In this document: piece after piece, positions 1 through 63,126 of the stretch | Layout of the letters: each line of letters opens with the position of its first letter | How positions within the stretch are numbered: position 1 is the first letter of the stretch | Origin: Siniperca chuatsi | Lineage: Eukaryota > Chordata > Actinopteri > Centrarchiformes > Sinipercidae | Direction: 5' to 3' | NCBI RefSeq assembly: GCF_020085105.1 | Contig: NC_058047.1 | Span: forward strand, 16,563,501 to 16,627,500 | Length of the DNA stretch: 64,000 bases | Notes under the pieces: model-generated | Databases searched by the model: none | The model's input: only the letters and a program-made list of their open reading frames with translations | What the model was told of the DNA's origin: nothing | Program-made: the position numbers and the translations under genes

Positions 1-3000
1 AGCAGGCTGTAGTAGGAAGGTGGTTCGAAACCAGATTAAACGGGTGGTGGACAATCTGGAGCTGGTTCTCACAGCGCTGAGGGACGTTCACCAGGAAATG
101 AAAGAGGTAACGTGTTGGATTTTTGTTGATTCTGCATAACTCAGAGAAAAGAATAAGAAAGACACAAAAAGACAAAAGCTGTTTAGTGTTTATTCAACCG
201 TTTCACTTACACAATCATCACATGTGTTTCCTGGACTGGAAAAACAGAAACAAATCAGTTCAAAATAGGAGCAGAGACATTACTGCATCCTCTCACATTA
301 ATTTAGACATTTCCTCATGCAGGAAATGTTCATGCTTATGCTAAAAAACCTTAAGGGCTTGTTCTCTTGCTGATAACAATGCAGCATACGTCCTCAGCAG
401 AATTTAACATGCATTAAAAAGTCAGCAGCAGGGTTTCATGAATCCACCACAGTCTGCAAACTGTTTCTGCAACTCTCCTCTGTCATTTGTTTTTCCAAAC
501 ATATACACCACTTGTGCTTAATTCATGCGTACATTTTCATAGATGTGTATGAGACAATAGTTATGCCCCATTTGCATGATCTATTCAGAGGCTGCTGTGA
601 TGATGCTGTGTGACATTAGGCAAAGCAGTCGCCTTCCTCTCTGCATCTCCGTTTCTGTCTTTCCTCCTCTAACATCCCCTCTCATCTCTTCCTCCACTCT
701 CCCTCCTTATGGACAGATGCTGCTCCAGGCACAGCTGGATAGCGTCCGACGCTTTTTATAATCCATTTATGTCTGAGTATCTCTGCCTCGTAGTCCTCAT
801 CTAGTGAAAGTGACACGTAAAGCTCGCCTCTTGGCATTTGATCTGCATGTACGGGGTCGCAGCTAAACCCGAGGTGGTAACCTCATCATCCAGGCTGCGA
901 GGGTTTCTGTGACAGTATTAATATAACACTGATGAAAGAGCATATAGGCTACACAAAAAGAGGGGAATGAGGAGAGGGAGCAAGCAGACACTGTGATAGA
1001 AAATCCCAAATTTTCACAACAGAGACAACAGATCAAAGGAAGATAAGGCACCAGAGAAGACTTTGGTCGCATATTTATTTCAAAGCCCTGTTTTATCATT
1101 CTGTTGCATGAGCAGCAACCCTCAGTTTTATTTAATAATCAGTCACTGTTATAAAAAGGGATTGGAGTGAGCCTTTAAAGCATTTTAGACAGAGACTACA
1201 CAAATATTAAAACAACACTAAAGACCTCTATCTTATACAGCAGAAGAAAAAAAAACAAAAGCAAGCTCACACATGAATATGATGATCTTCTGCTAAGACA
1301 TTTTGACAGATCAAAAACTGCACTATGACTCAGAACTTCAAGCAAAACAACTGAGTTAAATTGAAAGAGGTAAATGAAACTTAAATGACTGAGCTCTACA
1401 AAAAATGTCTGTCAGCAGTCATGAGCACTATATGAAGACCTGAGGGGTCAAAAAACACTGTTTTTAATAAACACCCTCGGGAGCAGAAGATAAAAACCAG
1501 GGTCCTCTGCTCTTTTATCTCCTCTGATTTCTGACATTAACAAGCAGCACCTGCCCAGAGTCACTTGATGTGCATGTACACGCTGCACTTCAAAGTAATA
1601 TGAAATGCCTCGCCCAAAAAGCTACAGCATAAAAAAAAGACAAACCAGGTCATCTTTTGACATCAGCAAGGATGTTGTTGAACACAGAGAACAAAACAAT
1701 AATTCATCTGTTCCAGCAGGGGCTGAGGATTTATCTGTGCACATAGAGCAGGTGGAGAGATAGGTCAAACATTTTCCCCAGTGTAATTTTCTCCAATCTC
1801 TCCTGCCTCCATTATTCCACATATGTGTGTGTGTGTGTGTGTGTCAAGCATTTATGTGTATATGTGTTTTGGGCATACACTCGTGTTGCATGCTTGGCAC
1901 TCATTTAAATATATGCATCTAGACCTGTATGTCTGTTTATGAGATATTGTATAGTGTGCTTTTCACTATCCAAAGAGAAATATTAGAAGGGAAACCCACC
2001 TAAATTTGGCTTACACATTTCCCATAATAGGAATCTCATCCGTTCTAGGCTACATTTTTTGCACTAAGTAGTAGCTTGTGTGACATACTTAGAAATTAAA
2101 GCTATACATCTGGTCCACATCTGAAATGCTCCAAATTATAAATGCAGACATGCAAATGCAGAAAAAGTCAAAGTCAAATAACTTTTAATATTGCCATTAC
2201 TATATAGAGGCTACAGTGCTAAGACTGCTGATCATGCAAACACTGTGTCCCCGGTTCGAATCTGGCTGGGGATCTTCGTGACATGTTGGATCTCTCCTCT
2301 CTTTCCCCTCATTTCATGTCACTCATGTACTACTGTCTACTATCTGTGTACTGTTATTAATCAAGCAAAAATGCCAAATATTCTCTGGTTCCACCTTCTC
2401 AATTGTGAGGATTTGCTATTTATCATTGTAAACTGAAATGTTTTTGGTTTTAGACTGTTAATAGGACAAAACAAGGAATTTGCAGATGTCACCTTGGGCT
2501 CTGGGAAATTTTGACCAACAGTTTTCATTATTTTCTAATACATGACTGACTAAATGAAAATATGAAATGAAAATAAGTTTCAGGTTTTCATAGGGGGTAG
2601 TCCAGTGATTTAGTATTGCACTTTCATAAAGTTGAGAGACTCAGATTAAACAAAGAATGCTCAAAATCAAAGCAGAATTTTAGTCCCTAGTGTTGGTTGA
2701 TCTCCCAAAACACTGGATCCTACATTTCCCATAATGCAACTCAATAGAGACTTTCGTTAGATCTTCCCTGCCTAATAAACACCCACATCTTTCAAACTCC
2801 ACACTTCCAGTTTGTAACTCAGGTGTTCTGTTAAAAGTCTCGAACCCCAAGCTGGGATAACCCTGATGACATCGCTATGACATCACTAGGGTTATTGTCT
2901 CAAACTGGAAAGCTCCGTTCAGAGCCACAGGCTGAATGTGCTCCTCATGATAAGTAAACTGTCTTTGTATTCATAACCATACTGTATGTATTTATCCATC

Positions 3001-62800: not shown

Positions 62801-63126
62801 GCCTCAGTGATTTGAGATGGGATTAAGTATCAGCAGACTTAAATGGTTGTGTCTCCCACTCTCTCTCTTTGTCGACCTTGGAAAGGTGGTGAAACTTCAC
62901 ACCAAGCTGGGCAAACCTATACCTTCCACTGAGCCAGTGTTGGTGAATTCGGCTCCAGTTATCGCAACGTCGACAGCTGGGAAACCTTCAGTCTGCACAT
63001 CCACTCCTGCCTCCGTCTCAACCACTTCAACTCCCTCTGTGACACCCAAACAGGTGGCTGTAAACGCCACGGTCAAAACAGCAGCACCAGTCAAGAAACC
63101 AGCTCCTTCCAAAATAACTGTCATTT
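53887..63126 (+). CDS. zfr2: Zinc finger RNA-binding protein 2, 5' part, with a frame break in exon 5
   Basis: Plus-strand exons: 53887-53963, 58004-58244, 58573-58687, 60393-60620, 61750-62083, 62433-62621 and 62886-63126; the gene runs on past the window. [11 protein letters not shown] matches ZFR/ZFR2, and the in-frame MYSTGDAK before it resembles human ZFR (GEDAK), so either ATG (53887 or 53911) may be used. Then come Tyr/Pro/Gln-rich low-complexity exons and two U1-type zinc fingers, [10 protein letters not shown] (exons 5-6) and [10 protein letters not shown] (exon 6), followed by [17 protein letters not shown]. The third finger and DZF domain lie outside. ZFR proteins bind dsRNA and affect splicing in the nucleus. 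Position beside atcay indicates zfr2. Exon 5 is 334 nt, where the flanking phases require length 2 modulo 3. The frame entering it stops at TGA 61911, while the frame leaving it is open from about 61768 on. A one-base loss in its CAG/CCC-rich part explains both. Confidence 0.9.
55010..55679. mobile_element. hAT-type non-autonomous element in zfr2 intron 1, element A
   Basis: Flanked by perfect 8-bp direct repeats TCTGTAGT at 55002-55009 and 55680-55687. Left end AAGGTGTGGGTGA and right end (reverse) TAGGGCTGGGTGA match at 10 of 13 positions. The 670-bp interior has no recognised transposase. Terminus and duplication length fit the hAT superfamily. Confidence 0.75.
56167..56709. mobile_element. 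hAT-type non-autonomous element in zfr2 intron 1, element B
   Basis: Flanked by perfect 8-bp direct repeats GTTTCCTG at 56159-56166 and 56710-56717. Left end TAGGGCTGGGCAGTCTGG and right end (reverse) TAGGGGGTGAGCAATCTGA form an imperfect inverted repeat. Length 543 bp, non-coding. Its left terminus is nearly the same as the right terminus of element A. Confidence 0.8.
57150..57400 (-). repeat. Partial copy of the 5700-6515 repeat, opposite orientation
   Basis: Contains 'gttttgagtgaaatatctcaacaactattggatggattgccatgaaattt', the reverse complement of blocks near 6290-6340, and a 'tcagactgaaatatgtcaacaac' block matching 6465-6480 in reverse. Lies in zfr2 intron 1. Confidence 0.55.
57566..57604. 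repeat. ATT trinucleotide microsatellite
   Basis: About 13 TTA/ATT units with one interruption, in zfr2 intron 1. Confidence 0.9.
58482..58505. repeat. Poly-T tract upstream of zfr2 exon 3
   Basis: 24 T residues, 68 bases before the exon 3 acceptor. It may contribute to the pyrimidine signal, though it is distant. Confidence 0.9.
59145..59895 (+). mobile_element. Decayed Tc1/mariner-like transposon in zfr2 intron 3
   Basis: Ends carry TAGTATGTGAACCCCTT on the left (about 59147) and GGGGTTCACTTACTG on the right (about 59870), an imperfect inverted pair. Between them runs a broken transposase-like reading frame. The best piece, at 59557-59772, has TLFGVIKQN upstream of [15 protein letters not shown], which corresponds to the KHGGGSxMxWGCF block of Tc1-type transposases. 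Stops and frame changes make it inactive. Exact ends and the TA target duplication were not fixed. Confidence 0.6.

What the first reader, a model, noticed from the sequence alone, without database searches (positions are those of the whole stretch)
1..63126. A whole-genome-duplication paralogon keeping a third Largen/INSYN1-type gene beside a LOX-type gene
The window pairs a Largen/INSYN1-like gene with a LOX-type lysyl oxidase next to mydgf, nmrk2, atcay and zfr2. In human, PRR16 lies near LOX (5q23) and INSYN1 near LOXL1 (15q24). NMRK1 and PRUNE2 (paralogues of NMRK2 and ATCAY) are neighbours on 9q21, and ZFR (paralogue of ZFR2) is on chromosome 5. This locus is therefore best read as the 19p13.3-type ohnologue block. 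To my knowledge mammals have neither a Largen/INSYN1 member nor a LOX gene at 19p13.3, so the pair would be ancestral genes lost there but kept in fish.
Basis: partly seen in the sequence, partly recalled or inferred. Interest (0 to 1): 0.7.

Follow-up and report, generated by a model that had tools for sequence, protein, structure and literature searches.

The report
Fish third Largen-type gene beside loxl5
A fish chromosome keeps what looks like a third relative of the Largen/INSYN1 genes next to loxl5, a collagen cross-linking enzyme gene known from fishes, in a gene block that looks like a leftover of ancient whole-genome duplication.

Summary
The window (contig C6 of an unnamed 719 Mb genome) carries the 3' part of a Largen/INSYN1-type gene, then mydgf, a complete LOX-type gene, nmrk2, atcay and the start of zfr2. 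The LOX-type gene is neither lox nor loxl1: the same genome holds two lox-type copies (C18, C5) and loxl1 (C1), and the window gene groups with a fifth locus on C13 (ultrafast bootstrap 97 and 100). By elimination it is LOXL5, already published as fish-specific, so that half is known. For the Largen-type half, C13 carries a second copy about 12.5 kb from the second loxl5, convergent with it as in the window, so the pairing predates the C6/C13 duplication (presumably the teleost one; not dated). On C6 the next recognisable gene upstream, about 8 kb away, is tnfaip8l1, whose human counterpart is at 19p13.3. The pair shares only a 48-residue core with recalled PRR16/INSYN1, stays below Pfam DUF4589's cut-off and lacks RERVRF. 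Not shown: prr16 and insyn1 elsewhere in this genome (1 of 44 genome-search runs was answered, and that was for LOX), any outgroup fish, absence in tetrapods. Verdict: probable third Largen/INSYN1 ohnologue; interpretation partly supported.

The parts
2..106 (+). Largen/INSYN1-type gene ('largen3'), end of the exon that carries the conserved core; the exon continues upstream outside the window (first in-frame ATG at C6:16562485, L021:8985)
   Evidence: splice donor and open frame; core 54% identical to recalled PRR16, 9.0 SD above shuffles
3019..3996 (+). largen3 last exon, starting VVQQIDYLTSSIDL and ending STTV-stop
   Evidence: splice acceptor and ORF; first 17 residues 13 of 17 identical to the C13 copy
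9285..15472 (-). mydgf, 6 exons, 165 aa
22329..27024 (-). LOX-type gene, loxl5 by elimination, 7 exons, 535 aa, with the His cluster and the conserved Lys and Tyr segments of lysyl oxidases
33813..36985 (-). nmrk2, 7 exons, 201 aa
   Evidence: family; paralogue name recalled
44206..50172 (-). atcay, 11 exons, 368 aa
   Evidence: family; paralogue name recalled
53911..63126 (+). zfr2, 5' part (runs off the window)
   Evidence: first two exons modelled, the rest read; zinc fingers (paralogue name recalled)

Best explanation
The window is part of one member of the vertebrate 1/5/15/19 paralogon, the one matching human 19p13.3, in a fish. It keeps loxl5 (the third LOX/LOXL1 relative, published as fish-specific) and a third Largen/INSYN1-type gene between tnfaip8l1 and mydgf. 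The pair most likely descends from an ancestral TNFAIP8 - Largen - LOX gene string copied by the early vertebrate genome duplications, copied once more to give C6 and C13 (presumably at the teleost duplication), and lost from the corresponding tetrapod block. Shown here: gene content, linkage in two copies, distinctness of the LOX gene. Inferred: timing, loss in tetrapods, and function. Likely function (inferred): loxl5 encodes a secreted copper/quinone lysyl oxidase that cross-links fibrillar collagen, as in the notochord sheath; the Largen-type protein is an adaptor whose core binds a partner complex and whose C-terminus (STTV, TSMV) is a PDZ-type ligand.
For: One PF01186 search of the own genome gave 49 exon matches, a lower bound by the tool's own note; I grouped them into 10 loci that cover the catalytic domain plus 2 partial copies. 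Five loci are LOXL2/3/4-type and five LOX/L1/L5-type (C6 window, C13, C1, C18, C5). Window + C13 form a clade with support 97 (own genome only) and 100 (two recalled human sequences added), apart from C1 and from C18/C5. The two loxl5 copies are 82.4% identical, similar to the other paralogue pairs in this genome (79.4, 82.8, 89.9), as expected if all date from one genome duplication. Exon 1 of C18 and C5 carries MVGDDPY and a GYGT end, C1 neither. C13 has a second Largen-type gene about 12.5 kb from its loxl5 in the same convergent orientation. tnfaip8l1 is the next recognisable gene upstream of largen3 on C6, about 8 kb away: 56 of 62 residues match PDB TNFAIP8L1, 45 TNFAIP8, 41 TNFAIP8L3 (TNFAIP8L2 scored lowest and was not counted). 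Paralogon and LOXL5: PMC5489176, PMC4448552. Stickleback loxl5a is listed in one outlier region with Myo9b (PMC4829042; MYO9B on human 19p is recalled). One cattle and one chicken gene list that hold TNFAIP8L1 and MYDGF name no LOX or Largen gene. loxl5b is fifth by score in the zebrafish notochord table rows seen (PMC9170247). InSyn1's N-terminal predicted coiled coil is needed for its association with the dystroglycan complex (PMC6944460).
Against: prr16 and insyn1 were not located in this genome: no match at E below 0.1 in about 80 kb around loxl1 on C1, and one chance-level match (E 0.60) in 30 kb downstream of each lox; the genome-wide search never ran. No outgroup was available and the C6/C13 duplication was not dated. 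The Largen core is short, the human comparison uses recalled sequences, and beyond the core similarity to PRR16/INSYN1 was not detected. The deeper LOX branches are weak (57-69), so LOX/LOXL1/LOXL5 branching is unresolved. The proline-rich region ascribed to LOXL5 is not evident (8.4% proline in the window copy, 9.0% in C13, lower than lox or loxl1). No coiled-coil prediction was run on the new protein.
Confidence: 0.77

Rival explanations
1. The Largen-type gene is a relocated or fast-evolving prr16 (or a lineage-specific duplicate of it), not a third ohnologue.
For: Its core is nearer PRR16 (54%) than INSYN1 (44%) (recalled sequences); prr16 was not located elsewhere in this genome.
Against: Two copies sit beside the two loxl5 copies in the same orientation, so the move would predate the C6/C13 duplication; the upstream neighbour is tnfaip8l1, whereas zebrafish prr16 lies next to hsd17b4 in the Hsa5-type block (PMC5489176); the C13 copy scores 7.1 bits against DUF4589 and the C6 copy does not appear, while recalled PRR16 scores 260.
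Confidence: 0.15
2. The core similarity to Largen/INSYN1 is a generic coiled-coil resemblance and the gene belongs to another family.
For: Only 48 residues match and no Pfam family is reached.
Against: The match is ungapped and 8.0-9.0 SD above shuffles. The last exon begins within one residue of where the DUF4589 profile starts on recalled PRR16 and INSYN1, and the C13 exon aligns to profile positions 2-31, though only at E 6.7. The place beside a LOX gene parallels PRR16-LOX and INSYN1-LOXL1 (recalled map positions).
Confidence: 0.08

Closest known systems
LOXL5 (fish lysyl oxidase family, PMC4448552)
   Same: LOX/L1/L5-type catalytic domain, LOX-like propeptide end (GYGT), separate from lox and loxl1 in the same genome
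   Different: No LOXL5 reference sequence was available, so it is assigned by elimination; proline-rich stretch not evident; the window copy lacks the MV.DD segment that C13 and both lox copies keep
PRR16 (Largen) / INSYN1, Pfam DUF4589
   Same: 48-residue core; last exon starting where the DUF4589 profile starts; C-terminal [S/T]-x-V ending as in recalled PRR16
   Different: N-terminal extension of about 340 residues on C6 and 310 on C13; no RERVRF motif (C13 has a VRY stretch at residue 175, on the other side of the core); below the DUF4589 cut-off. Whether the human genes have the same exon boundary was not tested
1/5/15/19 vertebrate paralogon (TNFAIP8 family, PMC5489176)
   Same: tnfaip8l1 present; the zebrafish tnfaip8l1 block is orthologous to Hsa19
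   Different: Here a Largen-type gene sits between tnfaip8l1 and mydgf, and loxl5 beyond mydgf

Membership tests
Lysyl oxidase (PF01186) | Catalytic domain with His cluster and the conserved Lys and Tyr segments | tested here: met
   309 bits over 1-204/204; [21 protein letters not shown] and CYDTY present
LOXL5 | Third LOX/L1/L5-type clade, with lox and loxl1 present separately | tested here: met
   window + C13 clade 97/100; lox on C18/C5 and loxl1 on C1
LOXL5 | LOX-like propeptide | tested here: met
   GYGT end shared by window, C13, C18, C5 and not C1; MV.DD in C13, C18, C5 but not in the window copy
LOXL5 | Proline-rich region | tested here: inconclusive
   8.4% (window) and 9.0% (C13) proline in the pro-region, lower than lox (12.0, 10.7) and loxl1 (12.6)
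LOXL5 | Grouping with published LOXL5 sequences | not testable with these tools
   no vertebrate sequence collection at hand
Largen/INSYN1 (DUF4589) | Pfam DUF4589 above cut-off | tested here: not met
   C13 7.1 bits (cut-off 27), profile 2-31; C6 no match
Largen/INSYN1 (DUF4589) | Conserved core upstream of and into VVxQIDxLT | tested here: met
   54/52% to recalled PRR16 and 44/40% to recalled INSYN1, 8.0-9.0 SD above shuffles
Largen/INSYN1 (DUF4589) | RERVRF motif (recalled from PRR16 and INSYN1) | tested here: not met
   neither RERVRF nor RVRF in the C6 or C13 protein
19p13.3-type ohnologue block | tnfaip8l1 and mydgf as neighbours | tested here: met
19p13.3-type ohnologue block | prr16 and insyn1 present at their own loci in this genome | not tested
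   genome-wide search did not complete; about 140 kb searched locally without a hit

The most novel reading that the evidence does not exclude
A third vertebrate Largen/INSYN1 ohnologue, with a long N-terminal extension and kept in two copies beside the two loxl5 genes, survives in fishes and was lost together with LOXL5 from the tetrapod 19p13.3-type block.
Probability: 0.65. Interest if true: 0.5.

Novelty: new member of a known kind. Interest (0 to 1): 0.42.

Why it matters
If true it would give a three-member ohnologue set for two gene families at once and tie the published fish-only LOXL5 to a defined chromosomal block with a second co-lost gene. The Largen/INSYN1 family (cell size, inhibitory synapses) would gain an unstudied fish branch that could be removed in zebrafish or medaka to test shared functions.

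Tried and rejected
Rejected: the LOX gene being lox or loxl1. Rejected as chance: the Largen core match. Searched without result: mydgf, nmrk2 and atcay relatives in C13:9538000-9567900, about 30 kb around the C13 loxl5; insyn1/prr16 in C1:24876501-24956400 (part of it); prr16 in C18:14040801-14070800 and C5:1983901-2013900, where the only match was at E 0.60; Rfam in the window, 0 matches. Nine paper searches listed no paper on a third Largen/INSYN1 gene, judged from titles and abstract starts; one sea bass paper naming 'protein largen' (PMC7218500) was not opened. Papers seen as passages: PMC4448552, PMC2446394, PMC4829042, PMC6944460, PMC9170247, PMC8875079, PMC11050503, PMC7901938; PMC5489176 as passages, outline and part 1 of 3 of its Results. 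A recalled TNFAIP8L1 sequence did not agree with PDB 8gyn and was dropped in favour of the PDB alignments. Dropped before the LOX tree: the partial C18 copy and the single C5 exon.

Full report
What is in the window. On contig C6 of the window's own assembly (719 Mb, 65 contigs) the recognisable order is tnfaip8l1 (+, outside the window, C6:16552709 to about 16554530), largen3 (+, first in-frame ATG at C6:16562485, ending at window 3996), mydgf (-), the LOX-type gene (-), nmrk2 (-), atcay (-), zfr2 (+). No recognisable ORF lies in the 8 kb between tnfaip8l1 and largen3, judged by eye. Pfam and PDB searches confirm the families; nmrk2, atcay and zfr2 rather than their closest paralogues rest on recall.

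The LOX-type gene. One PF01186 search of the own genome gave 49 exon matches, which the tool calls a lower bound. I grouped them into five LOXL2/3/4-type loci (C11, C3, C15, C5, C2) and five LOX/L1/L5-type loci (C6 window, C13, C1, C18, C5), plus a partial second copy on C18 and a single last exon on C5; these last two were left out of the tree. In an IQ-TREE analysis of the catalytic domain the window gene and C13 form a clade (support 97; 100 when recalled human LOX and LOXL1 are added). C1 joins LOXL1 (88% identity, support 97); C18 and C5 pair (82 and 84) and sit with LOX (85% and 78% identity, support 64). The window gene is 75% identical to recalled LOX and 73% to recalled LOXL1. Exon 1 agrees without any recalled sequence: C18 and C5 have MVGDDPY and a GYGT end, C1 has neither and ends SVYRPEQRG, C13 has MVNDDP and GYGT. 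The window copy keeps GYGT but not MV.DD. As LOXL5 is the only other LOX/L1/L5 family described in fishes by PMC4448552 (passages), the window and C13 genes are most likely loxl5 duplicates. The deeper order of LOX, LOXL1 and LOXL5 is unresolved (57-69).

The Largen-type gene. The window holds its last exon and the end of the exon with the conserved core. With the flank the predicted protein has 699 residues; the start codon is a prediction. Fetching 20 kb downstream of the C13 loxl5 revealed a second copy on the minus strand, 518 residues, about 12.5 kb from loxl5. In both places loxl5 and the Largen-type gene are convergent. On C6 mydgf lies between them; on C13 no mydgf was found in C13:9538000-9567900. 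The copies are 62.5% identical over the 48-residue core, 54% and 52% identical to recalled PRR16, 44% and 40% to recalled INSYN1; recalled PRR16 and INSYN1 are 48% identical to each other. Part of the long N-terminal extension also aligns between the copies (FSTEVPHRGL / FPTEVPQKHL). The last exon begins within one residue of the start of the DUF4589 profile. Recalled PRR16 and INSYN1 score 260 and 338 bits against DUF4589, which also shows that the recall was sound; the C13 copy scores 7.1 (E 6.7), in register, and the C6 copy does not appear. Neither copy has RERVRF. The pair is thus a divergent relative and fails Pfam's membership test.

Which block. The first 91 residues of tnfaip8l1 match Pfam TNFAIP8 at 4.3e-38. 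Over the 62 residues held by PDB 8gyn the match is 56 to TNFAIP8L1, 45 to TNFAIP8 and 41 to TNFAIP8L3. TNFAIP8L1 is at human 19p13.3, and the Hsa5 region around TNFAIP8 is paralogous to parts of Hsa1, 15 and 19 (PMC5489176). Zebrafish prr16 lies next to hsd17b4 in the Hsa5-type block. From recall, human TNFAIP8 - PRR16 - LOX on 5q23 has the same order as tnfaip8l1 - largen3 - loxl5 here. One cattle and one chicken gene list with TNFAIP8L1 and MYDGF name no LOX or Largen gene; that is weak evidence of absence.

When it was duplicated. The loxl5 pair is 82.4% identical, like the lox pair (79.4), the LOXL2-like pair (82.8) and the LOXL3-like pair (89.9) of this genome. This fits one shared genome duplication, presumably the teleost one, but the C6/C13 pairing was not tested chromosome-wide.

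Function. loxl5 has the residues of an active lysyl oxidase, and zebrafish loxl5b is fifth by score in the notochord table rows seen (PMC9170247), so collagen cross-linking in the notochord sheath is the likeliest role; this is inference. InSyn1's N-terminal predicted coiled coil is needed for its association with the dystroglycan complex (PMC6944460, passages); by homology the core of the new protein may bind a related complex, and its STTV/TSMV ends look like PDZ ligands (motif recalled).

Limits. One genome and no outgroup. The genome-wide Largen-family search did not complete, so prr16 and insyn1 of this fish are not located; about 140 kb searched locally gave no hit.

Noticed in passing
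window 26030-26170 (-): The window loxl5 copy lacks the MV.DD segment around the presumed propeptide cleavage site that C13 loxl5 and both lox copies keep, so its processing may differ.
   Followed up: partly
L011-L013 (C18:14010-14041 kb): A second lox copy lies about 26 kb upstream of the complete one, with identical peptides in exons 2 and 3, an altered exon 4, and no exon 5 or 6 found in the stretch read: a recent partial duplication or an assembly artefact.
   Followed up: partly
L015 (C5:1983233-1983343): A stray copy of a late lox exon about 13 kb downstream of the C5 lox gene, with reverse-transcriptase-like ORFs in the next 10 kb (L036, by eye).
   Followed up: no
L027:9209-9481 into L021:about 739-1030: tnfaip8l1 has an intron within its coding region after ...LVENFR.
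   Followed up: no
window about 25900-25980 and 32430-32580: Long (AT)n repeats in loxl5 intron 1 and downstream of nmrk2.
   Followed up: no
L023, C13 largen3 residue 175: A VRYVSVDEEEEGCGC stretch, faintly like the RERVRF region of INSYN1 but N-terminal of the core.
   Followed up: no
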